From Rhizobiales bacterium 2SD (lineage in GTDB: Bacteria; Pseudomonadota; Alphaproteobacteria; Rhizobiales; Beijerinckiaceae), in the NCBI GenBank assembly GCA_005502805.1, contig SCMY01000008.1, positions 62,001-126,000 on the forward strand: DNA of 64,000 nucleotides. Direction: 5' to 3'. The translations under genes and the position numbers were made by a program. Positions 45,650 to 61,329 of this stretch are shown in pieces; the first letter of the stretch is position 1; the number at the start of each line of letters is the position of its first letter. A model generated the notes under the pieces. That model was given only the letters and a program-made list of their open reading frames with translations, was not told the origin of the DNA and did no database searches.

Positions 45650-46147
45650 ATGAGCCCGCTGAACGACAGCGACGTGCGAGCTGCCGCGGCGCCGCCGGAA
45701 ACGGCTCAGGCCTCGGGCGCGAACGATATTCTGCTCGGCCTGCTCTTCGCTGCGATCGGGGCGGCGGCGCTCTTTATCGGCCGCGACTATGTCTTCGGCA
45801 GCAGCCTGCGCATGGGGCCCGGTTTCCTGCCGCGGATCGTCGCCGGCGGCCTCGTTCTGCTCGGGATCGTGCTGATGATCCGCGGCATGTTCGCCCGAGG
45901 CTGGGCGCCTCCGGCCATGGTCTGGCGGCCGATCGTGCTGATTTCGTTGGCCGTGATCGTCTTCTCCGCGACGATCGACCGGCTCGGCCTGTTCGTCGCT
46001 AGCCTCCTGACCGTCAGCATCGGCGCCTGCGCAGGGCAGGAGGTCCGCTGGAAGGAACTGCCGTTCGTCGCGCTCGGGCTCGCGGCCTTCTGCACCATCC
46101 TGTTCGGCTATCTCCTGAAGATCTCGATGCCGGTGTGGCCGCGATGA
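45650..46147 (+). CDS. tctB: Tripartite tricarboxylate transporter, TctB subunit
   Basis: 165 residues, four membrane helices, the small membrane subunit of a TTT-family secondary transporter. RMGPGFLPRIVAGGLVLLGI is the typical TctB motif near helix 2. ATG 45650 follows GGGGGAGGAGCG. Overlaps the TctA start by four bases. Confidence 0.92.
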   Translation: MSPLNDSDVRAAAAPPETAQASGANDILLGLLFAAIGAAALFIGRDYVFGSSLRMGPGFLPRIVAGGLVLLGIVLMIRGMFARGWAPPAMVWRPIVLISLAVIVFSATIDRLGLFVASLLTVSIGACAGQEVRWKELPFVALGLAAFCTILFGYLLKISMPVWPR

Positions 46148-47646
46148 GCGAGATCGTCCAGTCGCTGGCGCTCGGTTTTGGCGTCGCCGCCTCCCTAAGC
46201 AATCTCTGGTACTGCTTTCTCGGCGCGCTGATCGGCACGCTGATCGGCGTCCTGCCCGGCATCGGCCCGATCGCGACCATGGCGATGCTGCTGCCGCTGA
46301 CCTATTACCTGCAGCCGACCGAGGCATTGATCATGCTCGCCGGCATCTATTACGGCGCTCAATATGGCGGCTCGACCACCGCCGTGCTGATGCGCCTGCC
46401 GGGCGAGTCCTCCTCCGTCGTCACCTGCCTCGACGGCTATGCCATGGCGCGCAAAGGCCGCGCCGGCACCGCGCTCGCGACGGCGGCGCTCGCCTCCTTC
46501 TTCGCCGGCACGGTGGTGACGCTGCTGATCGCGATCGCCAGCCCCGCCTTGACCGAGCTCGCGCAGAAATTCGGCCCGGCCGAATATTTCTCGCTGATGG
46601 CGCTCGGCCTCGTCGCCGCCGTCGTCTTCGCGCAGGGCTCGCCCTTGCGCGCGGTCGGCGCGATCTTCCTCGGCCTGCTGCTCGGCCTGATCGGCGCCGA
46701 CGTCAACACCGGCTTCGACCGCTTTACCTTCGACCGGCCGGAGCTGCGCGACGGCATCGGGGTCGTCGTCGTCTCGATGGGCCTGTTCGGCATCGCCGAG
46801 ATCATGCTCAATTTGTCCGGTGGACCGGAAGGGCAGGGCGAGCGCACGAAGCTGTCACGGCTCTGGCTGACGAAAGAGGATTTCCGCGCGGCGTGGCCGG
46901 CGACCTTGCGCGGCACCGGGCTCGGTGCGCTGCTCGGCGTCCTGCCCGGCGGCGGCGCCATGCTCGGCTCCTTCGCCTCCTATGCGATCGAGAAGCGGAT
47001 CTCGGACACGCCGGAGCGCTTCGGTGAAGGTGCGATCGAGGGCGTCGCCGGGCCGGAAGCGGCCAACAATGCCGGCGCGCAATCCTCCTTCATCCCGATG
47101 CTGGCGCTCGGCATCCCCGGCAATTCGGTGATGGCGATGATGGCCGGCGCCATGCTGATCCACGGCATCGCGCCGAGCCCGAACCTCGCCTCGACCCAGC
47201 CGCAGCTGTTCTGGGGCCTGATCGCCAGCATGTGGTTCGGCAATTTTATGCTGCTCGTCATCAACCTCCCGCTGATCGGGCTCTGGGTGAAGCTGCTGGC
47301 CGCGCCCTACCGCATGCTGTTCCCGGCGATCCTGCTGTTCTGCTGCATCGGCATCTACACCGTGAACAACAGCGCCTTCGAGGTCGGCCTCGTCGCTCTG
47401 TTCGGCCTGCTCGGCGTGGTCTTGGCCAAGCTCGAATGCCCGCTGGCACCGCTGGTGCTCGCCTTCATCCTCGGGCCGATGATGGAGGAGAATCTGCGCC
47501 GCGCCATGCTGCTCTCGCGCGGCGACCCGTCGATCTTCCTGTCGAGGCCGATCAGCCTGGGGTTGCTGATCGCTTGCGCGCTGGTGGTGGCCCTGCTGCT
47601 GATGCCGAATTTCCGCCGGGCCCGCGAGGCGGCGACGGAAGCCTGA
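46144..47646 (+). CDS. tctA: Tripartite tricarboxylate transporter, TctA subunit
   Basis: 500 residues, about 12 membrane helices, the main channel subunit. Family-defining repeats GVLPGIGPIATMAMLLPLTY and LLGVLPGGGAMLGSFASYAIEK and the GEGAIEGVAGPEAANNA segment are intact. ATG 46144 overlaps the tctB stop. Confidence 0.96.
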   Translation: MSEIVQSLALGFGVAASLSNLWYCFLGALIGTLIGVLPGIGPIATMAMLLPLTYYLQPTEALIMLAGIYYGAQYGGSTTAVLMRLPGESSSVVTCLDGYAMARKGRAGTALATAALASFFAGTVVTLLIAIASPALTELAQKFGPAEYFSLMALGLVAAVVFAQGSPLRAVGAIFLGLLLGLIGADVNTGFDRFTFDRPELRDGIGVVVVSMGLFGIAEIMLNLSGGPEGQGERTKLSRLWLTKEDFRAAWPATLRGTGLGALLGVLPGGGAMLGSFASYAIEKRISDTPERFGEGAIEGVAGPEAANNAGAQSSFIPMLALGIPGNSVMAMMAGAMLIHGIAPSPNLASTQPQLFWGLIASMWFGNFMLLVINLPLIGLWVKLLAAPYRMLFPAILLFCCIGIYTVNNSAFEVGLVALFGLLGVVLAKLECPLAPLVLAFILGPMMEENLRRAMLLSRGDPSIFLSRPISLGLLIACALVVALLLMPNFRRAREAATEA

Positions 47647-47673
47647 GTTGTGTTGGGAAAGGGGAGGACGACG

Positions 47674-48657
47674 ATGATAACACCCAGCAGGCGTAGCGCG
47701 CTCGGCCTCATCGCCGCGGCCTCCCTCGCGGCCCTGCCGCAGGTCGCAATGGCTCAGGCCTACCCGACAAAACCGGTGAAGATCATCGTGCCTTTTGCCG
47801 CCGGCGGGCGAGCCGATGCGCTGGCGCGTATGCTGGCACAGGGCCTGCAGGAGCAGATGGGCCAGCCTTTCGTGGTCGAGAACCGCGGCGGCGCCAGCGG
47901 CAGCCTCGGCTCCGATCTCGTCGCGAAGGCGCCGCCCGACGGCTACACCCTGCTGCTCGCCTCGACCGGCACGCAGGCCATCCTGCCGAAGATCAGCGCC
48001 AAGCTGCCCTATGATGCCGATCGTGACTTCACGCCGATCGCGCTGATGGTCGAGAGCTATAGCTTCATCGGCGTGCATCCCGGCGTGAAGGCGAGCAACC
48101 TAAAGGAGTTCGTCGATCTCGCGCGGGCCAAGCCGGGAGAGTTCAACTATGCCAGCTCCGGCGTCGGCACCTACAACCACTTCGCCGGCGAGTTCTTCAA
48201 CATCGCCGCCGGCTCGAAGATCACCCATATCGCCTATCGCGGCAGCGGCCCCTCGGTGAACGATCTCGTCGCTGGCCATGTCCAGATGATGATCGGTGGT
48301 GAGTTCGTCGAGGTCGCGCAGGCCGGCAAGGTCCGCATCCTCGCGACGACCAATCCGCAGCGCTGGCCCGGCCTGCCGGACATTCCGACCATGAAGGAGG
48401 CCGGGCTCGCCGAATTCTCGGCGCCACCGCTCTGGTTCGGCCTGCTCGGGCCTGGCGGCATGCCGCGCGAGCTCGTCGAGAAGCTCAACCAGGCCGCCAA
48501 CAAGGCGATGAGTGACCCGAAGACCGTCGAGCGCGTCAAGGCCGCGGCGAGCATCGTGCGGACCGAGAGCGCCGACGCCTTCGCCGGCCTGATCAAGGCC
48601 GAGCAGAAGGCCTTCGGCGACGTCGCCAGGCAGACCAACATGAAGTTCGAGGAGTAA
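47674..48657 (+). CDS. tctC: TctC-family periplasmic receptor (first of two)
   Basis: 327 residues, ATG 47674 with GGGGAGG 7 bases upstream. Signal peptide about 1-27 (cleaved near AMAQA). Bug/TctC fold: YPTKPVKIIVPFAAGG, KAPPDGYTLLLASTGT and HIAYRGSGPSVNDLVAGHVQ. These receptors bind citrate, other carboxylates or nicotinate-like compounds; ligand unknown. A paralogue follows after 45 bases. Confidence 0.93.
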   Translation: MITPSRRSALGLIAAASLAALPQVAMAQAYPTKPVKIIVPFAAGGRADALARMLAQGLQEQMGQPFVVENRGGASGSLGSDLVAKAPPDGYTLLLASTGTQAILPKISAKLPYDADRDFTPIALMVESYSFIGVHPGVKASNLKEFVDLARAKPGEFNYASSGVGTYNHFAGEFFNIAAGSKITHIAYRGSGPSVNDLVAGHVQMMIGGEFVEVAQAGKVRILATTNPQRWPGLPDIPTMKEAGLAEFSAPPLWFGLLGPGGMPRELVEKLNQAANKAMSDPKTVERVKAAASIVRTESADAFAGLIKAEQKAFGDVARQTNMKFEE

Positions 48658-48702
48658 CCGGGCGGAGGATCCGGAACACTCGGCGAGACAGGGGAGGAAG
48701 CG

Positions 48703-49686
48703 ATGCTCAAGGGACAACTGACGCGCCGTATGGCGCTGCTGCTCGCCGCTGCGGGCGCATTCGGTGCAGGCGTAGTTGAAGCGGCTGCGCAGGCCTATCC
48801 GGCCAAACCGGTGAAGATCATCGTGCCGTTCGCGCCGGGCGGGCGCGTCGAGGGCATCGCCCGCCTGCTCGCCAACAGCATGAGCATCGATCTCGGCCAG
48901 CCCTTCGTCGTCGAGAGCCGTGCCGGCGCCGGCGGCGCGATCGGTTCCGATTTCGTCGCGAAGGCGGCGCCGGACGGCTACACGCTGCTGCTCGCCTCGG
49001 CCGGCACCCACGCCATCCTGCCCAATGTCGACAAGAAGCTGCCCTATGACTCGGTGAAGGATTTCACTCCGATCGCCAATCTCGTCGAAGGCTTCACTTT
49101 CCTGGGAGCGCATCCCTCCGTCGAGGCCAAGACGGTCGCCGAACTCGTCGCTCTCGCCAAGGCCAAACCCGGCACGATCGGCTTCGCCAGCTCCGGCGTC
49201 GGCACCTACGGCCATTTTGCCGGCGAGCTGCTCAAGATCTCCTCCGGCGCCGATCTGATGCATGTGCCCTATCGCGGCAGCGGCCCGGCGCTCAACGACA
49301 TCGCCGCCGGCCATGTCCCGCTGATGATGGCGGGCGAGCTCGTCGAGCTCGCCAAGGCCGGCAAGGTCCGCATCCTCGCGACGACCAATGAGCGGCGCTG
49401 GTTCGAGTTGCCCGACGTCCCGACGATGAAGGAAAGCGGCTTCCCGCAATTCACGGCGCATTCCTGGATCGGGCTGGCAGGTCCGGCAGGCATGAACCCC
49501 GAGATCGTCGCCAAGCTCAACGCGGCCGCCGGCAAGGCGCTGGCCGATCCGAGGGCGCAGGAGCAGCTCAAGACGCTCGGCGTCCTGCCGAATTTCTCGA
49601 CCCCGGCGGAATTTGCCGCACGCATCGCCGCCGACCGCGCCGTCTATGCCGAGATCGTCGCCAAGGCGAACCTCACATTCCAGTAG
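48703..49686 (+). CDS. tctC: TctC-family periplasmic receptor (second of two)
   Basis: 327 residues, same length as the preceding gene and alignable over the whole mature part (YPAKPVKIIVPFAPGGR, KAAPDGYTLLLASAGTHAILPN, HVPYRGSGPALNDIAAGHVPLMM). Tandem duplication of the receptor is evident; the signal peptides differ. Both probably feed the single TctAB channel. Convergent with the minus-strand operon, 14 bases away. Confidence 0.93.
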   Translation: MLKGQLTRRMALLLAAAGAFGAGVVEAAAQAYPAKPVKIIVPFAPGGRVEGIARLLANSMSIDLGQPFVVESRAGAGGAIGSDFVAKAAPDGYTLLLASAGTHAILPNVDKKLPYDSVKDFTPIANLVEGFTFLGAHPSVEAKTVAELVALAKAKPGTIGFASSGVGTYGHFAGELLKISSGADLMHVPYRGSGPALNDIAAGHVPLMMAGELVELAKAGKVRILATTNERRWFELPDVPTMKESGFPQFTAHSWIGLAGPAGMNPEIVAKLNAAAGKALADPRAQEQLKTLGVLPNFSTPAEFAARIAADRAVYAEIVAKANLTFQ

Positions 49687-49700
49687 GTGGGGGGTAGCGC

Positions 49701-50036
49701 TCAGGCTTTCAGATGCAGCGTCACCAGCACGGTGATCTCGGCGCCATCCGGCAGCGTCGCGGCGACGCGCAGGAAATTGCCGAAATGGGCGAGGCGCTGG
49801 AAGGTCACGGCGTCCTGGGCGGCCGGCAGCGGAAACTCCGAGCCCTCGGCGCACCAGTGCATGCCATCCGCCGAGATTTCGATCCGCGCCTTGGGCAGCG
49901 CTCCCTTCGGCTGCTTCAGCGCCCGCACGAAGACGATCGCTTCCCTGGCCCAGCCGGCCTCGTAAGGCTCGGTCGCGCTTGATCCCGTCCAGATCTCGTT
50001 GCGGGCGACGACGGCGGTCAGGTTCTCGGGCAGCAT
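49701..50036 (-). CDS. Uncharacterised 111-residue protein of the sugar-acid cluster
   Basis: 111 residues, no recognised family. Beta-rich sequence (EIWTGSSATEPYEAGWAREAIVFVRAL, ARIEISADGMHWCAEG), no signal peptide or membrane helix. It looks like a small beta-sandwich or jelly-roll module. Its ATG overlaps the stop of the 294-residue gene (TGATG), so both are made together, and it is the last gene of a five-gene minus-strand operon with an enolase-superfamily enzyme and two sugar permeases. Confidence 0.75.
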   Translation of the reverse strand: MLPENLTAVVARNEIWTGSSATEPYEAGWAREAIVFVRALKQPKGALPKARIEISADGMHWCAEGSEFPLPAAQDAVTFQRLAHFGNFLRVAATLPDGAEITVLVTLHLKA

Positions 50037-50920
50037 CAGAACTCTCCCGACAGGCAGACGGAATCGAGATAGGCGAAGGCGCGCTTGTCGGTGTCGGTCT
50101 CGGCGAAGAAGGCGAGGTTGAGCATGCACCATAGGTTCTTCATCGCCGGGATGCGGATGCAGTCGAAGCCGTCCATGGCGAAAACGCGGTCGTTGACCTG
50201 GAACCGTGTCGCCTGCATCGCGGCGAGGTCGAAGTCGAAGCGCAGATAGTGCCAGTTCACCTTGGTCGGGATCTCGTTGTAGCAGAGCCGCTGCTCGCCG
50301 CCCGGCAAGTCCTCCCAGTCGTCGGGAGCAAGGTGGTAGTGGGTGATCGTCTTGCCGGCCGTTCCGATCGGCTTGATCGGCGTCGTCCTGCGCTTGAACT
50401 GCCATCTCTGGATATGCTTGCCGTCCTGCGCGTTGAGGAAGCGTAAGTGCGGCATGACGCGATCGCCGGGTCCGGAGGTATCGCCGATCTGGAGATCGTA
50501 GAGGAAGCCGAAGGAGCGGATATCGGTCTCCGAGAGCTGCAGCTCGCTCGCCTCGGGCTTGAAGGTGAAATAGGCCTCGAGCCGGATTGGGCCAGGCTTG
50601 CGGAAGGTCAGGCGCTTGATCGCGACGTTCTGCGCGCCCTTCTTCGGCCGCGTCGCGATCTTCAGCGCATAGGAGCCGTCGACACCGCCATGCGAGCCGA
50701 AATCCCAATTCGGCAGGGTCGAGAGCATGGCGTGGCTGTGCTGGGCATAGCCCGGCAGCATGGCGTCCAATGTGTCCTCGTAATTGCCGACGAGCTGGGT
50801 CCAGCCGCACATGCCGCGGTCGAAGTCGTCGAGGCAGATGATGCGGGGCAGGGGATCGAAGCGGCTCAAGTGCGGATCGGCCTCGCGGATGGCGCGTCTG
50901 AAGTCGTCGAGCTGGGTCAT
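50036..50920 (-). CDS. Uncharacterised 294-residue protein of the sugar-acid cluster
   Basis: 294 residues, no signal peptide or membrane helix. Sequence is rich in Trp, Tyr and Phe and in alternating beta patterns (CLDDFDRGMCGWTQLVGNYED, PIRLEAYFTFKPEASELQLS, KVNWHYLRFDFDLAAMQATRFQ), suggesting a large beta-sandwich, possibly carbohydrate-binding. I think it belongs to a conserved family of unknown function (DUF6772-like) but could not check. It follows the ABC permease gene by 4 bases and precedes the coupled 111-residue gene. Confidence 0.75.
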   Translation of the reverse strand: MTQLDDFRRAIREADPHLSRFDPLPRIICLDDFDRGMCGWTQLVGNYEDTLDAMLPGYAQHSHAMLSTLPNWDFGSHGGVDGSYALKIATRPKKGAQNVAIKRLTFRKPGPIRLEAYFTFKPEASELQLSETDIRSFGFLYDLQIGDTSGPGDRVMPHLRFLNAQDGKHIQRWQFKRRTTPIKPIGTAGKTITHYHLAPDDWEDLPGGEQRLCYNEIPTKVNWHYLRFDFDLAAMQATRFQVNDRVFAMDGFDCIRIPAMKNLWCMLNLAFFAETDTDKRAFAYLDSVCLSGEF

Positions 50921-50924
50921 GATC

Positions 50925-51752
50925 CTACCCTTTCACCGCGCCGGCGGTCAGGCCCGCGACGAGATGCTTCTGCATGAGGATGACGAAGGCGAGCACCGGC
51001 ACGAGCTGCACGGTCGAGGCGGCGAAGAGCACGCCCCATTCGACGCCCTCGACGGCGCCGATCATCTCGGAGATCACCAATGGCGCGGTCTTCGCCTTGG
51101 TGGTGGTGAAGATGAAGGCGAAGAGGAACTCGTTCCAGGCGTAGACGATGACGAAGACCGAGACGGCGAGCATGCCCTGCGCCGCCATCGGCAGGATCAC
51201 CTTGGCGATGATCTGCATCTGCGAGGCGCCGTCCATCATCGCGGCCTCGTCGAGCTCGCGCGGGATCTGGTCGATGAAGGTGCGCATCACCACCGTGCCC
51301 AGCGAGACGAAGAAGGTTGCGTAGAGCACGATCAGCACGAAGTGGGTGTCGTTGAGGCCGAGCCAGTTCACCACCGGGAAGAGCGGCAGGGTGATCACGA
51401 TCGGCGGGATCAACCGGATGAAGATCAGGAAGAAGGCCGAGGCCTGCAGCCCCTTGGAGGCGAAGCGCGAATAGGCGAAGCCGGCGAGCAGGGAGACGCC
51501 GACGGCGAGCACGGTCGCGCCTAGCGTGACGAGGAAGCTGTTCCACAGGCCGAAGAAGAAGTCGCCCCAGCGGCTCCATAATGCTTCATAGTTCGCGAAG
51601 GTCGGCGCGAAGGCGAAAGTGCCGGAGGTCGAAAAGATGTCGCGGTCGGCCTTGAAGGACGACATGGCGATCAGGCCGATTGGCACCAGCGACCAGGCGA
51701 CGATGGCGAGGACGCCGACGAGTTTCAGGAGATGGCGCAGGAGTTTAGGCAC
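50925..51752 (-). CDS. CUT1-type sugar ABC transporter permease, MalG-like
   Basis: 275 residues, six membrane helices. MalG/UgpE features: SSFKADRDIF near the N-terminus and the EAA loop ELDEAAMMDGASQMQIIAKVILP. Overlaps the partner permease gene by 8 bases. It forms the channel with the next upstream gene; no ATPase gene is found in the cluster. Confidence 0.92.
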   Translation of the reverse strand: MPKLLRHLLKLVGVLAIVAWSLVPIGLIAMSSFKADRDIFSTSGTFAFAPTFANYEALWSRWGDFFFGLWNSFLVTLGATVLAVGVSLLAGFAYSRFASKGLQASAFFLIFIRLIPPIVITLPLFPVVNWLGLNDTHFVLIVLYATFFVSLGTVVMRTFIDQIPRELDEAAMMDGASQMQIIAKVILPMAAQGMLAVSVFVIVYAWNEFLFAFIFTTTKAKTAPLVISEMIGAVEGVEWGVLFAASTVQLVPVLAFVILMQKHLVAGLTAGAVKG

Positions 51753-52617
51753 GCGCGAACGTCTCCTTGTAGAGCCGGCGCAGATAGAACAGCGCGAGCA
51801 GGAGCGAGGCGAGCACCAGGAGCCAGCCGGTGGCGGCAGCCGGGCCGAAGGCGTTGTAGCGGAAGGCCTCGAGATAGAGATAGACCGCCATCACCTCGGT
51901 CGAGCGCGCCGGGCCGCCGCCGGTCATCAGCCAGACCTCGGAGAACAGGCGGAAGGCGAAGATGTAGCGGAACAGCGCCGCGATCAGCAGCGCCGGCATC
52001 AGCAGCGGCAGCGTCACCCGGCGGAAGGAGGTCCAGGGCGAGGCGCCGTCGATCGCTGCGGCCTCGTAGAGGTCGCTGGGGATCGAGAGCCTGGCGGCAT
52101 AGAGGATGATGAAGCTGAACGGCAGGTGCAGCCAGATCGAGAGCAGGCTGACCATGGCGAGCCCGTGGCTCGGGTTCACAGCCCATTCGATTGGCGGCAG
52201 GCCAAGTGACAGCAGGAGACGACTCATCATCCCGACATCCGGCTCGAACAGGAAGCGCCACATCACCACTGCCGAGACCTCGCTGACCGCGTAGGGCGCG
52301 AGCACGATCGCCAGCAGCAGCGGCCGGAACGGCACGCCCGAGGCGAAGAACAGCGCCATGCCGAGGCCGAGCAGGAGCTCGACATGCACCACCACGGCGA
52401 CGACGATCACCGTATTGACCAGCGCCTTCCAGAAATAGGCGTCGCCCAGCACCTTGGCGTAGTTGGCGAAGCCGACGAAGCTCGCCGCCTGGCCGAAGGA
52501 GGACTGGTTGAGGCTGAGCCAGAAGACATAGATCGCCGGCAGGAAGATGATGCCGCCGATCATCAATTGGACCGGCGAGACCAACGCGATGGCGGAGAGG
52601 GGCGTGCGCGCGCTCAT
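51745..52617 (-). CDS. CUT1-type sugar ABC transporter permease, MalF/UgpA-like
   Basis: 290 residues from ATG 52617, which overlaps the stop of the enolase-superfamily gene; the frame runs further upstream inside that gene without meaning. Six membrane helices and the EAA loop YEAAAIDGASPWTSFRRVTLP. Partner of the MalG-like subunit. Confidence 0.92.
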   Translation of the reverse strand: MSARTPLSAIALVSPVQLMIGGIIFLPAIYVFWLSLNQSSFGQAASFVGFANYAKVLGDAYFWKALVNTVIVVAVVVHVELLLGLGMALFFASGVPFRPLLLAIVLAPYAVSEVSAVVMWRFLFEPDVGMMSRLLLSLGLPPIEWAVNPSHGLAMVSLLSIWLHLPFSFIILYAARLSIPSDLYEAAAIDGASPWTSFRRVTLPLLMPALLIAALFRYIFAFRLFSEVWLMTGGGPARSTEVMAVYLYLEAFRYNAFGPAAATGWLLVLASLLLALFYLRRLYKETFARA

Positions 52618-53741
52618 CAGGCGATCCTGAAGCGCGCCAAGGCGTCGCGGTCGATCTCGATGCCGAGCCCCGGCCCCTGCGGCACGGAAAGCTTGCCCTC
52701 GACCAGCTGCGAGCCCTCGCCGACGATCGGATGGGTGAAGGCGTCGCGTAGGGGGTTCTGGTAGACCATGCACTCGAAGGTGCGGAAGGTCTCGGCCGCG
52801 GCGGCGAGCTGCAGGCTGGCGGCGACGCAGATCGCGCCCGACCAGCCGACATGTGGGGCGTAAGCGGTGTTGAAGGCGGCGGCGAGCTCGCAGATGCGCC
52901 AGGTCTCGCTGATCCCGCCCGAGCGCGTCACGTCCGGCTGGATCAGCCCGAGCGAGCGGTCCTGCAGCGAGATCAGCGCGTCCGAGGCGACGAAGTCGCT
53001 CTCGCCGGCGGCGAGCCTGATCGGCAGATGCTGGGCGAGGCGGCGATAGCCCTCGCGATCCTGCGGCGCGATCGGCTCCTCGAAGAAGCCATAGCCGAGA
53101 TCGGCCAGCGCCCGCCCGACGATCAGCGCATCGTCGACGTCATAGGCCCAGTTGGCATCGACATAGAGCGCGATGTCGTCGCCGGCGAGCTTGCGGACCA
53201 ACCTGGCGCGGGCGATCGCATCGCGGAGCGGATGGCCGAGTTTGACCTTGATCTCGCGGAAGCCGGCTTTCAGCACGGCGGCGACCTCGGCCTCGACCGT
53301 GGCATCGTCGAGCCAGTTGATCGAGGAGGCATAGGCCGCGACCTCGCTGCGCCCCATGCCGCCGAGCAGCCTATGGATCGGCTGGCCGGCCTGCTTGCCC
53401 GCGATGTCCCAGAGCGCAATGTCGACAGCTGCGATCGCCTCGACGATCTGGCCGCCAGGGCGCCCGGACAAGGCGGCGCGCATTGCCTTCCAGAGTGCCC
53501 GCCGGTCGGCTGCATCGCGCCCGATCAGGCGCGGCACCAGCGCCTCCTCGATGAAGCGGGCATAGCCGGCGGCGCCGCGGCGGCAGAGCCCCTCGCCGAA
53601 GCCGACGACGCCATCGGCGGTCTCGACTTCGACCACGACGATCTCGATCGCCGGATAGTCGCCCTGCGACGTCCGCTGGACCTTGGGCAGCGTGGCCCGC
53701 AGCGGATGCGCGGTGATCTTCGCGATACGGCTGGCCGACAT
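52617..53741 (-). CDS. Enolase-superfamily sugar-acid dehydratase/racemase (mandelate racemase group)
   Basis: 374 residues. Barrel-domain catalytic residues can be placed: Lys165/Lys167 (EIKVKLG), metal ligands Asp195 (YVDANWAY), Glu221 (FFEEPI) and Glu247 (AAGESD), then Asp270 (QPDVTRSGG) and His297 (PHVGWSG), the His-Asp dyad of the mandelate-racemase group. Members dehydrate or epimerise aldonic and uronic acids. First gene of the minus-strand operon, divergent from the GntR gene with a palindrome between; the substrate is probably the cargo of the adjoining ABC permeases. Confidence 0.9.
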   Translation of the reverse strand: MSASRIAKITAHPLRATLPKVQRTSQGDYPAIEIVVVEVETADGVVGFGEGLCRRGAAGYARFIEEALVPRLIGRDAADRRALWKAMRAALSGRPGGQIVEAIAAVDIALWDIAGKQAGQPIHRLLGGMGRSEVAAYASSINWLDDATVEAEVAAVLKAGFREIKVKLGHPLRDAIARARLVRKLAGDDIALYVDANWAYDVDDALIVGRALADLGYGFFEEPIAPQDREGYRRLAQHLPIRLAAGESDFVASDALISLQDRSLGLIQPDVTRSGGISETWRICELAAAFNTAYAPHVGWSGAICVAASLQLAAAAETFRTFECMVYQNPLRDAFTHPIVGEGSQLVEGKLSVPQGPGLGIEIDRDALARFRIA

Positions 53742-53765
53742 GAAGCGGCGTCCTCTTGAGTGCTT

Positions 53766-53782
53766 AACTTATCTGATAGGTT
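53766..53782. promoter_or_regulatory. Palindromic operator of the sugar-acid cluster
   Basis: AACTTATC-T-GATAGGTT: arms match at 7 of 8 positions about a central T. It lies 25 bases upstream of the enolase-superfamily start and 56 bases upstream of the divergent GntR start. The form fits operators of FadR-subfamily GntR regulators. Confidence 0.6.
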
Positions 53783-53837
53783 GAACAGTTGCCAAGCTGA
53801 GCGGCATCTGTCAATGATCATCGAACGGAGGTGATCG

Positions 53838-54629
53838 ATGAGCGAGGCCGCTTCATCCCTGCTCGATGGCGATGACCCATTCGCCGGCGGTGACGTCGTG
53901 CCGATGCGGCTCGGCGATGCCGTGATCCAGCGCATCACCCAGGCGATCCAGGACGGCAGGCTGAAGCCCGGCGACGCCCTGCCGTCGGAAGCGCGCATCG
54001 CCGCCTCCTTCGGCGTCAGCAAGCCGATCGCCCGCGAGGTGATCCGCCAGCTCGCGGCAATGGGTGTCGTCCATATCCAGCAGGGCAAGCCGACTCGGGT
54101 GCAGGCGCTCGACGCCGCCCCGCTCGACCGCTTCTACCGTTTCGCCGTGCGCGGCCGCCCGAACGGCCTGACCGAGGCGGTGGAGTTGCGCCGCATCCTC
54201 GAGCCGCCGATCGCGGCCCATAGCGCGGCGCGCCGCTCGGCCGAGGATGTCGAGAAGCTCGACCTGATCCTCGCCCGCATGGAGGATGCGCTCGGCCATG
54301 TGCCGCGCTGGATCGAGGCCGATCTCGACTTCCACGAGGCCATCGCGGCCTCCTCCGGCAACCGCCTGCTCGACTTCCAGATCAGGGGCCTCAGGCCGGT
54401 GATCCGCGAGGTCATGGAAATTTTCAACTCACGCGGCAAGCGCACCAAGGACGATTGGCGGCGCACATTCGAGCGCCATGTCCGCGTCGTCGAGGCGATC
54501 CGCGCCGGCAATCCGACTGCGGCGGCTGCAGCCATGAACAAGCATTTCGAAGCGGCTGAAGCCGCCATCGCGGAACTCGCGAACCCTCGGGAGGACAGGC
54601 ATGGGCACGGAGACGGGACTCAACCGTAG
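53838..54629 (+). CDS. GntR-family (FadR/FCD) regulator of the sugar-acid cluster
   Basis: 263 residues. Winged helix about 30-95 (DGRLKPGDALPSEARIAASFGVSKPIAREVIRQLAAMGVV) and FCD domain with DLDFHEAIAASSGNRLL and ERHVRVVEAIRAG. Its last 29 bases overlap the first binding-protein gene, whose ribosome site (GGGAGG) lies inside it. It probably binds the palindrome at 53766-53782 and controls both arms of the cluster in response to a sugar acid. Confidence 0.92.
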   Translation: MSEAASSLLDGDDPFAGGDVVPMRLGDAVIQRITQAIQDGRLKPGDALPSEARIAASFGVSKPIAREVIRQLAAMGVVHIQQGKPTRVQALDAAPLDRFYRFAVRGRPNGLTEAVELRRILEPPIAAHSAARRSAEDVEKLDLILARMEDALGHVPRWIEADLDFHEAIAASSGNRLLDFQIRGLRPVIREVMEIFNSRGKRTKDDWRRTFERHVRVVEAIRAGNPTAAAAAMNKHFEAAEAAIAELANPREDRHGHGDGTQP

Positions 54630-55902
54630 GCAGTTCGGCGCCGGCGTTCTCGGACTGAGCTTCACGGCGCTGGGCGCCGGAGGCGTCCGCGCGCAGCAAG
54701 GCGGGCCGTTCAATGTCTTCGCCCATCGCGTCATGCAGACGGTCGCGACCGGCGCGCAGGGCGGCGACATCACCAGGGACTGGGCCGCCAAGAACGGCGT
54801 CGGCGTCCAGTGGACGACCTTCGACACCGGCCCGCTGCAGGAGCGGCTGTTTCGCGAGGCGAGCCTCGGCCAGACCTCGGTCGATGTCGGCTTCGTCCTC
54901 AACACCCAGGTGGTGCCGCGCGCGGCGAACCTGTTCGAGCCGCTCGACGACTATCTCAAGAAGGACCCGGTAGAGGACCCCGCCGACATCTTTCCCGGCC
55001 TGATGCAGGGCATGACTGTCGGCGGCAAGCAGCTCGCCGTCCCGTTCCGACATGCCTCCTCCGGCCTGCACTACAATGAGGAGATCCTGGCCGAGAAGGG
55101 CTTCTCCAAGCCGCCGGCGACGATCGAGGAGATGATCGAGATCGCAAGGGCCTGCAGTTATCGCCGCGCCGACGGCACGCAAGTCGTCGGGCTGTGCATG
55201 CCGGGCGTGACCTATCCCAATGTGATCGACCTCGCCCGCGCCTGGGATGGCGAGTTCATCACGCCCGACTTCAAATGCGCCGCCGACCAGCCGCCGATGC
55301 TGAATGCGATCCGGACGCTGCGCGAGCTCTTCCAGGCCAATGCCTTCCCGCGCAATTTCGCGACACTGTCGCCCGAGGACGTCAATGTCTGGATGCAGCA
55401 GGGCCGGGCGGCGATGAGCCTGCAGAGCATGGGCCGCAATCGCATCTACAACGACCCACAGAAGTCGAAATTCTCCGGCAAGATCAAGACGATCGCGGTG
55501 CCGGCTTCGAAGATGCTGGCCGGCAAATACGAGGCCGCTCCGGCCAAGGTCGAGTTCTGGGGCATGGTCATCCCGAAGAACGCCAGGCGCAAGGACCTCG
55601 CCTGGAGCTTTATCAAGGCGATGGTCTCGAAAGAGGCGACGCTCAAGGCCGCGCTCAACGGCAACGGCCCGGTGCGCGCCTCGACCTATGCAGACCAGAG
55701 CTTCGCCGGCACCGTGCCCTATGCGGCCGAGGAGTTGAAGGTCTTGAAGGTGGCGCGGGTGCCGCTGCCGGCCTTCGACGAGGCGGCCCGCGCCGGCGAC
55801 CTCTTCAAGGAGGAGGCGGAGGCTGCGGTGCTCGGCATGAAGACGCCGGAGGAGGCGATGGCCTCGCTGGTCAAGCGCGTGCAGCCGCTGCTGCCGGCCT
55901 GA
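54601..55902 (+). CDS. Sugar ABC transporter binding protein, Tat-type signal (first of two)
   Basis: 433 residues, ATG 54601 with GGGAGGA upstream. Twin-arginine signal (NRRQFGAGVLGLS) cleaved near VRAQQ. Type-2 family-1 extracellular binding protein (ERLFREASLGQTSVDVGFVL, HYNEEILAEKGF, WMQQGRAAMSLQ). Paralogue of the next gene. Probably works with the CUT1 permeases at 50925-52617. Confidence 0.9.
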   Translation: MGTETGLNRRQFGAGVLGLSFTALGAGGVRAQQGGPFNVFAHRVMQTVATGAQGGDITRDWAAKNGVGVQWTTFDTGPLQERLFREASLGQTSVDVGFVLNTQVVPRAANLFEPLDDYLKKDPVEDPADIFPGLMQGMTVGGKQLAVPFRHASSGLHYNEEILAEKGFSKPPATIEEMIEIARACSYRRADGTQVVGLCMPGVTYPNVIDLARAWDGEFITPDFKCAADQPPMLNAIRTLRELFQANAFPRNFATLSPEDVNVWMQQGRAAMSLQSMGRNRIYNDPQKSKFSGKIKTIAVPASKMLAGKYEAAPAKVEFWGMVIPKNARRKDLAWSFIKAMVSKEATLKAALNGNGPVRASTYADQSFAGTVPYAAEELKVLKVARVPLPAFDEAARAGDLFKEEAEAAVLGMKTPEEAMASLVKRVQPLLPA

Positions 55903-55933
55903 CAAAAGGCGGAACAAGCCTGGAGGAGATGCC

Positions 55934-57223
55934 ATGACCTTTCCGATCTCGCGCCGCCGCTTCGGCGCTCTCGCCGGCGCGGCTGTCGCGGCCTCCACCT
56001 TGCCCGGCCGTGCACTCGCACAGGCGAAGACGCTGACCGTGCTCGGCCATCGCGTCCATCAGACTGCCGCCACGACTGGGCCGGGCGGCGACGCCACCGA
56101 AGCCTTCCGCAAGGCGAGCGGAGCGAACCTGAACTGGGTCACCTTCGGCGACGTCAACGCCGTGCATGAGCGCCTGCTGCGCGAGGCCTCGCTGGCCGAG
56201 ACCTCGATCGACGTCGCCTATCTCGTCAACGGCCGCGCCGTGCCGCGCAATCTCAAGCTGTTCGAGCCGCTCGATACGTTCATGAAGGACGCGCCGATCG
56301 AGGCCTTCGACGATTTCGCCCCCGGCCTGATCGGCCCGCTCAAGGTCGAGGGCGCCCTGCATGGCATCCCCGTGCGCCACGCCACCAACGCGCTGATCTA
56401 CAACGAGGCGCTTCTGGAAGAGCGCGGCGTCAGCAAGCTGCCGACGAGCTTCGAGGAACTGGTCGAGGTCGCGCGCAAGCTCACCTTCAAGCGCGAGGAC
56501 GGCACGCAGGTCCATGGCCTCGCCTTCACCGCCGTCTTCGCCTCGAATTTCCTGACATTCTCGCGCTGCCTCGGTGGCGACTACATGACGGCGGACGGCA
56601 AGCTCACCGCCAACGAGCCGGCGATGGTCAAGGCGCTGACCATCCTCGCCGACCTCTACAAGGCCGGTGTGCTGCCGCGGAACTTTGCCACGGTGAACAA
56701 TGAGGAGATCACCACCTGGATGCAGCAGGGCCGGGCGGCGATGACGATCAACCCCTTCGCCCGGCTGGTCTCCTACAACGACCCGGCCAAGGGCAAATAT
56801 GGCGGGCGCTTAAAGTCGCTGCTGCCGCCCATGGCCGCCGAGCTTTCCGGCAAGCTCGCCTTCGCGCCGACGGTCGAATTCTGGTCGCTGATGATCCCAA
56901 AGAACGCCAAGCAGAAACCGCTCGCCTGGGAGCTGATCCGCGCGCTGTCCTCCAAGGCCGGCACCACGGCGATGGCGCTGAACGGCAACGGGCCGACTCG
57001 GATATCGACCTATGCCGACGAGAAGCTGAAGGCGGCGATGTCCTATGCCGCCGACGAGGCCGCGGCGCTGAAGGCCTCGCGCATCCATCTGCCCGCCTTC
57101 GACGAGCAGGCGCGCGCCCATGACATCTTCGTCGAGGAAACGCAGGCCGCGGTGCTCGGCCGCAAGCCGCCGCAGCAGGCGATGGATGATGCCGTCGCAC
57201 GCGTGAAGCCGCTGCTCGGCTGA
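55934..57223 (+). CDS. Sugar ABC transporter binding protein (second of two)
   Basis: 429 residues. Twin-arginine-like signal (ISRRRFGALAGAAVA, cleaved near ALAQA). It aligns with the preceding protein through most of its length (VLGHRVHQTAATTG, ERLLREASLAETSIDVAYLV, IYNEALLEERGV, WMQQGRAAMTIN), so the pair arose by tandem duplication and has diverged widely. Its stop overlaps the SDR start (TGATG). Confidence 0.9.
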   Translation: MTFPISRRRFGALAGAAVAASTLPGRALAQAKTLTVLGHRVHQTAATTGPGGDATEAFRKASGANLNWVTFGDVNAVHERLLREASLAETSIDVAYLVNGRAVPRNLKLFEPLDTFMKDAPIEAFDDFAPGLIGPLKVEGALHGIPVRHATNALIYNEALLEERGVSKLPTSFEELVEVARKLTFKREDGTQVHGLAFTAVFASNFLTFSRCLGGDYMTADGKLTANEPAMVKALTILADLYKAGVLPRNFATVNNEEITTWMQQGRAAMTINPFARLVSYNDPAKGKYGGRLKSLLPPMAAELSGKLAFAPTVEFWSLMIPKNAKQKPLAWELIRALSSKAGTTAMALNGNGPTRISTYADEKLKAAMSYAADEAAALKASRIHLPAFDEQARAHDIFVEETQAAVLGRKPPQQAMDDAVARVKPLLG

Positions 57224-57975
57224 TGGCAGGATCGCTTTCAGGGCGTGTCGCCCTCGTCACCGGTGCGGCGCGGGGGATCGGCTTGGCGATTGCGACGCGG
57301 CTCACCGAGGCCGGCGCGCATGCGATCATCCATGACCGGGACGTAGTGGCCACGACCGCGGCGGCGGCCGACCTGCGGGCGAGAGACCTCGCGGCCTCAC
57401 CTTTGATCGCCGATCTTGCGGAGGTAACAGCTCCTTCCACCATGGCGGCGGAGCTGATGGCGAACGGCACCGAGCCCGATATCCTCGTGCTCTGCGCCTC
57501 CGTCGAAACACTGGAAAGCTGGGATGCAGTCTCGGAAGCTGCGATGGCTGCCCAGACCGAAATCAATCTCCACGCGACGCTGCGGCTACTGCAGGCCTTC
57601 CTGCCGGGCATGCTGGCGCGCGGCTTCGGCCGGATCATCGCGATCGGCAGCGTGCAGGAGACGCGCCCCAATCCGACGCATTTCTATTACGCGGCGACCA
57701 AGGCGGCGCAGACCAACATGATCCTCAATCTGGCGCGGACCCTGGGTGTCCCGGATGTTACCTGCAACATCATCCAGCCCGGCGCGATCCTGACCGATCG
57801 CAATCGCGCTGTCCTGGCCCAACCCGGACGGGAGGAGCAGGTGCTCGCGCGCATTCCGCTCGGCAGGCTCGGACGTGCCGAGGACTGCGGAGGTGTTGCA
57901 TTGCTGCTCTGCTCCCCCGAAGGCGCCTATATCAACGGTGCCGAAATCCCTGTCGATGGCGGCATGCGACTCTGA
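57223..57975 (+). CDS. Short-chain dehydrogenase/reductase of the sugar-acid cluster
   Basis: 250 residues, classical SDR. Cofactor motif TGAARGIG at 13-20, catalytic Asn115, Ser143 (IGSVQ), Tyr156 and Lys160 (YYAATK). The usual NNAG element is replaced by LCASVE (about 90-95), which is atypical. C-terminal INGAEIPVDGGMRL fits FabG-like sugar or polyol dehydrogenases. Translationally coupled to the second binding protein, so it likely oxidises or reduces the imported compound. Confidence 0.9.
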   Translation: MAGSLSGRVALVTGAARGIGLAIATRLTEAGAHAIIHDRDVVATTAAAADLRARDLAASPLIADLAEVTAPSTMAAELMANGTEPDILVLCASVETLESWDAVSEAAMAAQTEINLHATLRLLQAFLPGMLARGFGRIIAIGSVQETRPNPTHFYYAATKAAQTNMILNLARTLGVPDVTCNIIQPGAILTDRNRAVLAQPGREEQVLARIPLGRLGRAEDCGGVALLLCSPEGAYINGAEIPVDGGMRL

Positions 57976-58179: not shown

Positions 58180-61100
58180 TCACGTCGTCACCCCGGACAG
58201 ACTCTCGGTTTCCTCCACCGGCGGCAGCCGCCAAGCCTTGACCAGCCCGTAGATCGCCGGGATCACGAGCAACGTGAGCACGGTCGACGAAACCATGCCG
58301 CCGATCATCGGCACGGCGATGCGCTGCATCACCTCGGAGCCGGTGCCTGTGTTCCAAAGGATTGGCAACAAGCCAGCCATAATGGCGACGACGGTCATGA
58401 TCTTCGGCCGCACGCGCTCGACGGCGCCGATCATGATGGCCTCATGCAGATCGGCCCGGGTGAAGGTCCGCCTCTGCGTTTCGCAGCGTGCCCGCACCTC
58501 GTCGAGCGCGTGATCGAGATAGATCAGCATGATCACGCCGGTTTCGGCGGCGACGCCGGCGAGAGCGATGAAACCGACGGCGACGGCGACCGACATGTTG
58601 AAGCCGAGCCACCAGAGCAGCCAGACGCCGCCGACCAGCGCAAACGGCAACGACAGCATGACGATGATGGTTTCGGTCAGCCTGCGGAAGTTCAGGTAGA
58701 GCAGCAGGAAGATGAGCGCGAGGGTCACCGGCACGACTAGCCTGAGGCGTGCTTCAGCCCTTTGGAGATACTCGAACTGGCCGCTCCAGGCGACTCGGTA
58801 GCCCGCCGGTAGCTTGACGCTCTGCGCGATCGCGTTCTGCGCCTCGCTGACATAGCCGCCGAGGTCGCGCCCAACGGTGTCCACGAAAATGTAGACAGCG
58901 AGCTCGCCATTCTCGGTGCGGATCGAGGTGGCGCCGCGCTTGCGCTCGATGCTCGCGACCTCTCCGAGCGGCACGCTGGCACCGGACGGCGTCGAGACCT
59001 GCACCTCGCGCGCGATCGCCTGCGGGTCGGAACGCAGGTCGCGGGGATAGCGGATGGCGACCCCGTAGCGCTCGCGACCCTCGACCGTCGTCGTCACGGT
59101 CTCGCCGCCCATCGCCATCACCACGGCGTTCTGGACGTCGCCGACGGAGAGCCCGTAGCGGCCGAGCGCGATCCGGTCCGGCGCGATGTCGAGGAAGTAG
59201 CCGCCGATGACCCGCTCGGCATAGGCGCTGCTCGTGCCCGGAACCGCCTTCAGCACAGTTTCGATCTGGCGCGAGACTGCCTCCATCTGCGCGAGATCGG
59301 TGCCGAACACCTTCACCCCGATCGGCGTGCGGATACCGGTCGCCAGCATGTCGATGCGGGCCCGGATCGGCTGCGTCCAGGCGTTGGAGACGCCCGGGAA
59401 CTGCAGGGCCTTGTCCATCTCCGCCTTGAGCCTGTCGAGCGTGACGCCTTCCCGCCATTCCGCCTTGGGCTTCAGGTTGATGATGGTTTCGAACATCTCG
59501 GTCGGCGCCGGATCGGTCGCAGTCTGGGCCCGCCCGGCCTTGCCGTAGACCGAGGCGACCTCGGGGAACGAGCGGATGATCCGGTTCTGGGTTTGGAGCA
59601 ACTCGGCTACCTTGGTCACCGAGAGCCCGGGCAGGGTCGTCGGCATGTACATCAGCGTACCCTCGTCGAGCGTCGGCATGAACTCCGAGCCGAGCTGCCG
59701 TGCCGGCCAGAGGCTGAGGCCCAGCACCGCGACCGCCAGAACGATGGTCAATGTCTTGGCCTTGAGCACGCCGCGGATGAGCGGACGGTAGAGCGCGATC
59801 AGGAACCGGTTGATCGGGTTCCTGGCCTCCGGAATGATCCGGCCCCTTACGAAGATGACCATCAGCGCCGGAACCAGGGTCACCGAGAGCAAGGCTGCAG
59901 CAGCCATTGCGAAGGTCTTTGTGTAAGCGAGCGGCCCGAACAGCCTGCCTTCCTCCGCCTCCAGCGTGAAGATCGGCAGGAACGAGACGGTGATGACGAG
60001 CAGGCTGAAGAACAGCGCTGGCCCGACCTCGCTTGCCGCTTCGATCAGAATCTCGACGCGCGGCTTGTCCGGCGGCGCCCGCTCAAGGTGCTTGTGGGCA
60101 TTCTCTATCATGACGATGGCAGCGTCGATCATGGCGCCGACCGCAATGGCAATCCCGCCCAGGCTCATGATGTTGGAGCCGAGGCCGAGCGCTTTCATCG
60201 CCGCGAAGGCCATCAGGATGCCGACCGGCAGCATGATGATCGCCACCAGCGCGCTACGCAGGTGAAGCAGGAAGACGATGCAGACCAGGGCAACGATGAT
60301 GCTCTCTTCGATCAGCGTGCCCTTCAGCGTCTCGATTGCCCGCTCGATCAGCCCGGAGCGGTCATAGACCGGCACGATCCCGGCCCCGCCTGATAAACTC
60401 GGGGCGATCTCGGCAAGCCGCGCCTTGGCGCGCTCGATCACGGCGAGCGCATTGGCGCCGAAACGCTGCAGGACGATGCCGCTCGCGACCTCTCCCTCGC
60501 CGTTGAGCTCGGTGATGCCGCGCCGCTCGTCCGGGCCGAGCTCGACGCGAGCGACATCGGAGAGGCGCAAGGCTGCGCCGCGCTCGCTCTTCAGGACGAT
60601 GTTCTCGATATCGGCGATCGATTTCAGATAGCCGCGGCCACGTACCATGAATTCGAATTCGCTGAGCTCGACCGTGCGGCCGCCGACGTCGAGGTTGCTG
60701 CTGCGGACCGTCTCGCGCAGCGCAGCCAGCGAGATGCCTTGGGCGCGCAGCCGTACCGGATCCACCACGATCGCATATTGCTTGACGAAGCCGCCGACGC
60801 TGGCGACCTCGGCGACGCCCTCCGCGCGCGAAGCTGCGAAGCGGATCCTCCAATCCTGCAGAGAACGGAGTTCGGCCAGGGACATGTCCTTGGCCATGAC
60901 CGCATATTGGTACACCCAGCCGACGCCGGTCGCGTCCGGCCCGAGCGTCGGCGTTACGCCCGGTGGCAGACGGCGCGCGGCGGTGTTGAGGTATTCGAGC
61001 ACGCGCGAGCGCGCCCAATAGGGATCGGTGCCATCTTCGAAGATCACGTAGACGAACGAGACGCCGAAGAAGGAGAAGCCGCGCACGACGCGCGCGCTCG

Positions 61101-61329
61101 GCACGGTCAACATCGAGGTTGTCAACGGATAGGTGACCTGATCCTCGATCACCTGCGGCGCCTGGCCGGGATATTCGGTGTAGACGATGACCTGGACATC
61201 GGAGAGGTCGGGGATGGCGTCGAGCGGCAAGGTCCTGAGCGCGTAGAGCCCGGCGGCAACGACGAAGGCCGTGGCGACGAAGACGAGGATCAGGTTGCGC
61301 GCTGACCAGGCGATCAGGCGGGCGATCAT
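58180..61329 (-). CDS. cusA: CusA/CzcA-family heavy-metal RND efflux pump
   Basis: 1049 residues, the normal size of HME-RND inner-membrane pumps. The N-terminal DAIPDLSDVQVIVYTEYPGQAPQVIEDQVTYPLTT block and the TM4 proton-relay motif GGIAIAVGAMIDAAIVMIENAH are typical of the monovalent (Cu/Ag) CusA group. Two blocks of membrane helices and two large periplasmic loops are present. Start overlaps the cusB stop by four bases. No outer-membrane channel gene (cusC) lies in the window. Confidence 0.93.
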   Translation of the reverse strand: MIARLIAWSARNLILVFVATAFVVAAGLYALRTLPLDAIPDLSDVQVIVYTEYPGQAPQVIEDQVTYPLTTSMLTVPSARVVRGFSFFGVSFVYVIFEDGTDPYWARSRVLEYLNTAARRLPPGVTPTLGPDATGVGWVYQYAVMAKDMSLAELRSLQDWRIRFAASRAEGVAEVASVGGFVKQYAIVVDPVRLRAQGISLAALRETVRSSNLDVGGRTVELSEFEFMVRGRGYLKSIADIENIVLKSERGAALRLSDVARVELGPDERRGITELNGEGEVASGIVLQRFGANALAVIERAKARLAEIAPSLSGGAGIVPVYDRSGLIERAIETLKGTLIEESIIVALVCIVFLLHLRSALVAIIMLPVGILMAFAAMKALGLGSNIMSLGGIAIAVGAMIDAAIVMIENAHKHLERAPPDKPRVEILIEAASEVGPALFFSLLVITVSFLPIFTLEAEEGRLFGPLAYTKTFAMAAAALLSVTLVPALMVIFVRGRIIPEARNPINRFLIALYRPLIRGVLKAKTLTIVLAVAVLGLSLWPARQLGSEFMPTLDEGTLMYMPTTLPGLSVTKVAELLQTQNRIIRSFPEVASVYGKAGRAQTATDPAPTEMFETIINLKPKAEWREGVTLDRLKAEMDKALQFPGVSNAWTQPIRARIDMLATGIRTPIGVKVFGTDLAQMEAVSRQIETVLKAVPGTSSAYAERVIGGYFLDIAPDRIALGRYGLSVGDVQNAVVMAMGGETVTTTVEGRERYGVAIRYPRDLRSDPQAIAREVQVSTPSGASVPLGEVASIERKRGATSIRTENGELAVYIFVDTVGRDLGGYVSEAQNAIAQSVKLPAGYRVAWSGQFEYLQRAEARLRLVVPVTLALIFLLLYLNFRRLTETIIVMLSLPFALVGGVWLLWWLGFNMSVAVAVGFIALAGVAAETGVIMLIYLDHALDEVRARCETQRRTFTRADLHEAIMIGAVERVRPKIMTVVAIMAGLLPILWNTGTGSEVMQRIAVPMIGGMVSSTVLTLLVIPAIYGLVKAWRLPPVEETESLSGVTT

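What the first reader, a model, noticed from the sequence alone, without database searches (positions are those of the whole stretch)
49701..57975. Divergent sugar-acid cluster with two unknown proteins, two binding proteins and no ATPase
Nine genes are arranged around one palindrome (53766-53782): enolase-superfamily enzyme, two CUT1 permeases, a 294-residue and a coupled 111-residue protein of unknown function on one strand; GntR, two binding proteins and an SDR on the other. Gene overlaps bind each arm into one transcription unit. The two unknown soluble proteins are welded to the transporter genes yet are neither transport subunits nor known enzymes; beta-sandwich composition suggests ligand binding or a new isomerase/lyase. 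This is my best candidate for an undescribed catabolic route.
Basis: partly seen in the sequence, partly recalled or inferred. Interest (0 to 1): 0.75.

Follow-up and report, generated by a model that had tools for sequence, protein, structure and literature searches.

The report
Sugar-uptake cluster with paired unknown proteins
A soil bacterium's sugar-uptake and sugar-acid breakdown gene cluster carries two uncharacterised proteins that are almost always encoded side by side, probably two halves of one enzyme or carbohydrate-handling complex whose substrate is not known.

Summary
Nine genes lie as described around one palindrome in a Bosea genome. The 294-residue protein is not family-less: it is Pfam DUF6772. 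The 111-residue protein is only weakly like DUF6385. Neither name appears in the paper library searched. In 100 of 100 wide relatives and 43 of 43 sampled-genome loci (overlapping sets), the small gene directly follows DUF6772, usually sharing one base. The pair also occurs in an actinobacterium (about 35% identity). The enolase is the commonest partner but not obligate: three DUF6772 branches and two main-branch loci lack it. All 81 loci with full flanks carry CUT1-type permeases, but two permease lineages, about 30% identical, serve closely similar pairs, and the actinobacterial pair sits beside an MFS carrier. So the pair is the conserved core; transporter and enzymes are interchangeable. 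Predicted folds: lectin/concanavalin-like sandwich (moderate confidence) and small jelly roll (high confidence). Best reading: a cytoplasmic two-subunit enzyme acting early on an imported glycoside or oligosaccharide, feeding the enolase/SDR route. Activity, complex and substrate are unproven. The palindrome is a conserved, probable operator of the cluster's GntR, with one exact site in the genome. The missing ATPase is ordinary.

The parts
50036..50920 (-). DUF6772 protein, 294 aa; proposed large subunit of the pair, lectin/concanavalin-like fold
   Evidence: Pfam PF20562 E=1.4e-136; AF2 pLDDT 71, Foldseek probability 1.00 to L-type lectins but rmsd about 8.5 A or more and TM-scores mostly 0.3-0.4; 42 positions kept across 102 sequences
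49701..50036 (-). p111, 111 aa; proposed small subunit, jelly-roll beta-sandwich, weakly DUF6385-like
   Evidence: PF19912 16.2 bits, below the 26.8 cut-off; 59 of 63 aligned members hit it at E<=1, best 1.6e-6; AF2 pLDDT 96.5; adjacent to DUF6772 in 100 of 100 loci
50925..51752 (-). CUT1-type permease B
   Evidence: PF00528 E=2.6e-16
51745..52617 (-). CUT1-type permease A; start shares one base with the MR stop
   Evidence: PF00528 E=1.9e-12; junction
52617..53741 (-). Enolase-superfamily (MR group) putative acid-sugar dehydratase
   Evidence: PF13378 E=6.3e-59; K165/K167, D195, E221, E247, D270, H297 kept at 98% or more in an alignment of 81
53766..53782 (.). Probable operator palindrome, AACTTATCTGATAGGTT
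   Evidence: Derived motif with <=2 mismatches in 63 of 65 divergent GntR/MR intergenic regions, against 1 of 1300 shuffles (partly circular); one exact site in the genome
53838..54629 (+). GntR/FCD regulator
   Evidence: PF07729 E=2.9e-27, PF00392 E=9.7e-19
54601..55902 (+). Solute-binding protein 1, twin-arginine-like N-terminus (my reading)
   Evidence: PF01547 E=1.7e-16; N-terminus printed
55934..57223 (+). Solute-binding protein 2, twin-arginine-like N-terminus (my reading)
   Evidence: PF01547 E=1.8e-24; N-terminus printed
57223..57975 (+). SDR oxidoreductase
   Evidence: PF13561 E=9.2e-43

Best explanation
The region is a probably GntR-controlled uptake-and-catabolism divergon. Shown by sequence: a CUT1-type importer without ATPase (two binding proteins, two permeases), an MR-group enolase with an intact catalytic set, an SDR, and an overlapping gene pair DUF6772 + p111. 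Inferred: the binding proteins capture a plant- or soil-derived glycoside, oligosaccharide or sugar acid in the periplasm; a CUT1 ATPase encoded elsewhere drives the permeases; GntR leaves the operator when a pathway intermediate binds; in the cytoplasm DUF6772 and p111 form one complex with the active site on the DUF6772 sheet and p111 completing or gating it, cutting or converting the imported compound; the released sugar acid goes to the MR dehydratase and SDR. Other lineages plug the same pair into different downstream enzymes (amidohydrolase with or without aldo-keto reductase, or aldehyde dehydrogenase with an HpcH aldolase) and different importers, so the pair should act at the entry of the pathway rather than in the enolase chemistry.
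For: Pair adjacency 100 of 100 and 43 of 43; one-base overlap in 74 of 100; in 199 family genomes DUF6772 occurs in 21 and p111 in 23, the two extras being decay remnants: one p111 preceded by the bases for the DUF6772 C-terminus LSGDF-stop with no other DUF6772 match within the 19 kb fetched (the LSGDF reading is mine), one a 32-residue fragment. Pair conserved in Nonomuraea at about 35% identity. Modular partners: MR not found in 10 of 10 paralogue-group loci while permeases and binding proteins remain. 42 positions kept over 102 sequences, many charged or polar (R26, H77, R103, E115, K121, E123, D142, R154, C213, N215, E216, K220, Y225, D231, D244, R280, D286), which I judge to fit catalysis better than a purely structural role. 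E115, K121 and E123 have the same parity on or next to one predicted strand (111-122), so may face one way (inference). Fold class. MR catalytic set.
Against: No activity, substrate or complex was shown. The DUF6772 model is only moderate (pLDDT 71; TM-scores to the 50 listed PDB hits 0.25-0.41 by query length), so concanavalin-like is a fold class, not a homology claim, and such folds are also plain lectins. No catalytic pattern of a known glycosidase or lyase was matched; no solved relative was found for DUF6772 by profile (two weak hits, best E=0.08). The Nonomuraea genes called within 10 kb include no obvious downstream sugar enzyme apart from an SDR 8 kb away. The small protein's fold hits are weak and mixed. 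Cytoplasmic location rests on my reading of the N-termini: the hydrophobicity scan also stays low for the two binding proteins, so it does not discriminate.
Confidence: 0.4

Rival explanations
1. The pair catalyses a step in the enolase pathway itself (lactone hydrolysis, epimerisation, or cleavage of a keto-deoxy acid), as the first reader's 'new isomerase/lyase' suggests.
For: MR present in 70 of 72 main-clade loci with full flanks, in the Rhizobium-type loci directly upstream of the pair.
Against: Three DUF6772 branches show no MR (10 of 10 loci), and one of them has its own amidohydrolase, in part with an AKR; two main-clade loci also lack it.
Confidence: 0.25
2. The pair is a non-catalytic cytoplasmic lectin-like complex that binds the imported ligand, as buffer, sensor or carrier.
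For: Best fold hits of the large protein are L-type lectins and some hits of the small one are carbohydrate-binding modules; no known catalytic motif recognised.
Against: 42 positions kept down to about 35% identity, many charged, is more than lectin folds usually need (recalled, not tested); the pair persists with different transporters and regulators (GntR and LacI).
Confidence: 0.22
3. The pair is an accessory of the ABC importer (coupling, gating or substrate hand-over).
For: CUT1-type permeases within 8.5 kb in 81 of 81 loci with full flanks; the pair directly follows permeases in Bosea-type loci.
Against: Two CUT1 lineages, about 30% identical, serve pairs whose DUF6772 is about 72% identical, and Nonomuraea has an MFS carrier and no permease or binding-protein match within 10 kb.
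Confidence: 0.1

Closest known systems
Pfam DUF6772 (PF20562)
   Same: The 294-residue protein is a full-length member, E=1.4e-136.
   Different: The Pfam name gives no function; neither DUF6772 nor DUF6385 occurs in the paper library searched, so I found no account of the pairing.
C-deglycosidases (DgpB/DgpC, CarB/CarC; PMC8563793, passages seen)
   Same: Two subunits, the small one a beta-sandwich, with the active site at their interface; catabolism of a sugar conjugate.
   Different: Their large subunit is a Mn-binding TIM barrel; here it is predicted lectin-like. No entry so named is among the 50 listed structure hits of either model. Analogy of architecture only.
MR-group acid-sugar dehydratase clusters with SDR and ABC importer (recalled kind)
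   Same: MR catalytic set, GntR/FCD regulator, binding-protein-dependent importer.
   Different: The three best solved relatives of the enolase carry only putative or family names (3ozm, 3h12, 3bjs); the fifth is a galactonate dehydratase (5olc, E=2.2e-47). No equivalog cut-off is reached. The DUF6772/p111 pair is extra.
Concanavalin-like and L-type lectin folds (Emp46/47, VIP36, ERGIC-53)
   Same: Predicted fold class, Foldseek probability mostly 1.00.
   Different: Sequence identity 6-14% and rmsd about 8.5-14 A over the 50 listed hits; no homology claim.

Membership tests
DUF6772 (PF20562) | Score above the curated cut-off over the whole profile | tested here: met
   454.8 bits against 27, profile 1-283 of 284
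DUF6385 (PF19912) | Score above the curated cut-off | tested here: not met
   16.2 bits against 26.8 for the window protein; two paralogues in other genomes just reach it, one only with its neighbours in the frame
Mandelate-racemase group of the enolase superfamily | KxK, D/E/E metal ligands and His-Asp dyad (set recalled) | tested here: met
   K165/K167, D195, E221, E247, D270, H297 at >=98% in 81 aligned sequences
A characterised acid-sugar dehydratase | NCBIfam equivalog cut-off | tested here: not met
   Arabinonate dehydratase 192.7 bits against 650; L-talarate/galactarate dehydratase 176.5 against 500; galactonate dehydratase 174.7 against 311
CUT1 ABC importer | Binding protein and two permeases | tested here: met
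   Pfam hits for two binding proteins and two permeases; CUT1 assignment of the permeases from the nearest NCBIfam models (UgpA/UgpE, GlcT/GlcU), none at its cut-off
CUT1 ABC importer | Own ATPase in the cluster | tested here: not met
   Only two matches in the window, both outside the cluster; 151 matches in the genome, best 58% identical
C-deglycosidase heterodimer | TIM-barrel large subunit | tested here: not met
   Large protein is predicted mostly beta, with two helices in the N-terminal 60 residues
3-keto-disaccharide hydrolase (DUF1080) | Pfam match | tested here: not met
   Not among the hits at E<=1; fold relation not tested

The most novel reading that the evidence does not exclude
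DUF6772 and p111 are the large and small subunits of an undescribed class of cytoplasmic carbohydrate-active enzyme with a lectin-fold large subunit, used as a portable first step by several otherwise unrelated sugar-catabolic pathways in at least two phyla.
Probability: 0.35. Interest if true: 0.75.

Novelty: new variant of a known kind. Interest (0 to 1): 0.5.

Why it matters
It turns two separate unknowns into one testable unit: two genes nearly always side by side, with a probable single operator to use as a reporter and a known set of partner enzymes. If the pair is an enzyme, it would explain what an uncharacterised gene pair does in rhizobia, Bosea, Chelatococcus, Microvirga and others, and would supply a chemistry to several incomplete sugar-acid routes. 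The Rhizobium johnstonii 3841 copy lies beside a CUT1/enolase cluster that is probably the one reported to be induced in plant rhizospheres, with a mutant that competes less well on pea (PMC3333776, passages), so plant-root relevance is plausible; that published result concerns, as far as I can map it, the neighbouring cluster.

Tried and rejected
Lactonase role for the pair: weakened, because one paralogue branch carries its own amidohydrolase of a family that holds sugar lactonases (family role recalled). C-deglycosidase membership: rejected on fold. Orphan ATPase: of 151 ATPase matches I looked at 12 with 1.5 kb flanks and opened two without a permease match there, L146 and L148; both have permease matches 2-4 kb away, so no dedicated orphan ATPase was found, but the rest were not opened. 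Regulon: with up to two mismatches the operator has two more sites, while the reversed control pattern has one, so these are near chance level; one stands in front of a GntR paralogue with a permease of another type, an SDR-like gene and an enolase, the other (L145, 3 kb) has no match to the query set. Viral contigs: no relative. Papers on DUF6772 or DUF6385: none; three broader paper searches for the locus or the kind of cluster gave nothing on the pair. Substrate from solved relatives of the enolase, SDR and binding protein: no usable answer. A mapping of the Rhizobium locus to locus tags rests on RL3853 being described as an FAD-dependent oxidoreductase (PMC7105596, passage) and RL3858 as an MR protein (PMC3333776, passages); it is an inference.
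Full report
What is there. The window belongs to a Bosea: its DUF6772 protein is 97% identical to one from a Bosea MAG and 95-96% to several named strains, with other Bosea down to 83%. Pfam names the 294-residue protein DUF6772 with E=1.4e-136; the 111-residue protein (p111) only brushes DUF6385, 16.2 bits against a cut-off of 26.8; 59 of 63 aligned members, the window included, brush it at E<=1, the best at 1.6e-6. Neither name occurs in the full-text library searched.

The pair. I took the best 80 of 291 GTDB loci and 20 more from sampled genomes, 100 loci in all; at least one locus appears twice (L069 and L137 are identical in the tree). p111 follows DUF6772 on the same strand in 100 of 100, with one shared base in 74 of 100; in three loci my script took a start that is probably too far upstream (gap -94), the others lie between -22 and +14 bases. 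The 80 are the most similar loci, so I checked a second set: the 43 DUF6772 loci returned by genome searches in family, order, phylum and class samples (30 + 10 new + 1 new + 2 new). p111 is adjacent in 43 of 43. The two sets overlap. The other way round, 199 genomes of the family gave DUF6772 in 21 and p111 in 23. The two extra genomes hold remnants: in G036 an intact p111 is preceded by bases that spell the DUF6772 C-terminus LSGDF-stop, and tblastn finds no DUF6772 in the 19 kb around it (the LSGDF reading is mine), with a tRNA-Pro 0.9 kb upstream; in G084 only 32 residues of p111 remain. A Nonomuraea record (Actinomycetota) has the pair too, DUF6772 at 34.6% identity and a 105-residue p111 relative that the p111 profile finds at E=1.7e-24 in a two-sequence test.

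The partners. Among 81 loci with at least 8.5 kb on both sides, tblastn with window and relative queries finds CUT1-type permeases within 8.5 kb in 81, a binding protein in 81, the MR enolase in 70, an SDR in 62, a GntR in 64. Among the 72 of these in the main DUF6772 clade the enolase is in 70; L095 and L100 lack it. In the ten loci of the other DUF6772 branches (nine with full flanks) the enolase is found in none, permeases and binding proteins in ten. Their partners differ: amidohydrolase in five (L123-L125, L133, L134), with an aldo-keto reductase in three of them; an SDR in L126-L128, with a cupin-like protein just under the Pfam cut-off in L126, the only one scanned; aldehyde dehydrogenase and HpcH aldolase in L129 and L130. 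L177, fetched later, repeats the amidohydrolase/AKR type. A tree of 80 DUF6772 rows separates these branches from the enolase-associated clade, but the tool warns of long branches meeting, so the deep order is unsure.

Interchangeable transporters. In Bosea-type loci the permeases are part of the pair's own operon. In Rhizobium-type loci the pair follows the enolase, and the importer, with its own ATPase, lies on the divergent arm; its permeases are only about 30% identical to the window's although DUF6772 is about 65-77% and p111 about 55-70% identical. Nonomuraea has an MFS carrier with a sugar-transporter match and a LacI regulator beside the pair, and queries for permeases, binding proteins and MR find nothing there. 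This argues against a transport subunit. The absence of an ATPase in the Bosea cluster is probably not remarkable: some relatives (L069, L071, L072, L075) carry one next to the enolase, and the own genome has 151 ATPase matches, the best 58% identical to the Rhizobium one.

Regulation. The near-palindrome at 53766-53782 is conserved: the derived motif AACYTAKCNNMTARGTT occurs with at most two mismatches in 63 of 65 GntR/enolase intergenic regions, against 1 of 1300 shuffled regions. The motif was derived from the same regions, so the test is partly circular. In the own genome the Bosea form has one exact site and two sites with two mismatches; the reversed control pattern has one. That GntR binds it is inferred.

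Structure. AlphaFold2 gave DUF6772 pLDDT 71, pTM 0.75, mostly beta apart from two helices in the N-terminal 60 residues. Foldseek's best PDB hits are L-type lectins, probability 1.00, E about 1e-6, with TM-scores of 0.25-0.41 by query length over the 50 listed: a fold class only. p111 gave pLDDT 96.5 and an eight-stranded sandwich; its hits are weak (E 1.4e-4 to 1.6e-3 over the 50 listed) and mixed: spore-appendage and prophage proteins (YomS, TM 0.60), F5/8-type domains and carbohydrate-binding modules among others. The second structural aligner was unavailable. Across 102 DUF6772 sequences, including Nonomuraea, 42 positions are kept in at least 97% of all rows and in every paralogue row; many are charged or polar. 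Neither protein shows a signal-like N-terminus to my reading; the hydrophobicity scan does not settle it, since the two binding proteins also score low.

Enolase. The MR catalytic set is complete and conserved. No NCBIfam equivalog is reached; the three best solved relatives carry putative or family names, the fifth is a galactonate dehydratase. The substrate therefore stays open.

Interpretation. Shown: a conserved divergon, a conserved palindrome, and a pair that travels together through changes of enolase, transporter and regulator. Inferred: a two-subunit cytoplasmic complex, more likely an enzyme than a lectin, acting on the imported compound before the lineage-specific enzymes. I put this at 0.4.

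Literature. PMC3333776 (passages seen) reports that in Rhizobium leguminosarum the CUT1 genes RL3860-2, near MR genes RL3858 and RL3864-66, are induced in all rhizospheres and that an RL3860 mutant competes less well in pea (index 0.58). PMC7105596 (passage seen) lists RL3853 as an FAD-dependent oxidoreductase. In L101 an FAD oxidoreductase (Pfam) lies directly after the pair and a second MR/CUT1 cluster follows, so the reported genes are probably that second cluster, not this one. PMC8563793 (passages seen) gives the architectural analogy of C-deglycosidases.

Noticed in passing
L101:14807-20871 (Rhizobium johnstonii 3841): A second MR enolase + CUT1 importer cluster lies beside the DUF6772 cluster; probably the rhizosphere-induced RL3858-RL3862 system of PMC3333776.
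   Followed up: partly
L160:9121-13680 (own genome C11): A GntR paralogue (41% identical) near a two-mismatch copy of the operator heads a permease of another type, an SDR-like gene and another MR enolase, without DUF6772 (the genome has one copy).
   Followed up: partly
L167:8984-9333 (G036): Intact p111 after a scar that keeps only the C-terminal codons of DUF6772, 0.9 kb from a tRNA-Pro.
   Followed up: partly
window 46135-49686: TctA-type tripartite tricarboxylate transporter gene followed by two TctC binding proteins in a row: another doubled binding protein.
   Followed up: no
window 58180-62744: RND efflux pump and CusB/HlyD-type fusion protein directly next to the cluster.
   Followed up: no
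L107, L132, L135: Two MR enolase matches in tandem before DUF6772.
   Followed up: no
L065, L067: Three binding-protein matches on the divergent arm instead of two.
   Followed up: no
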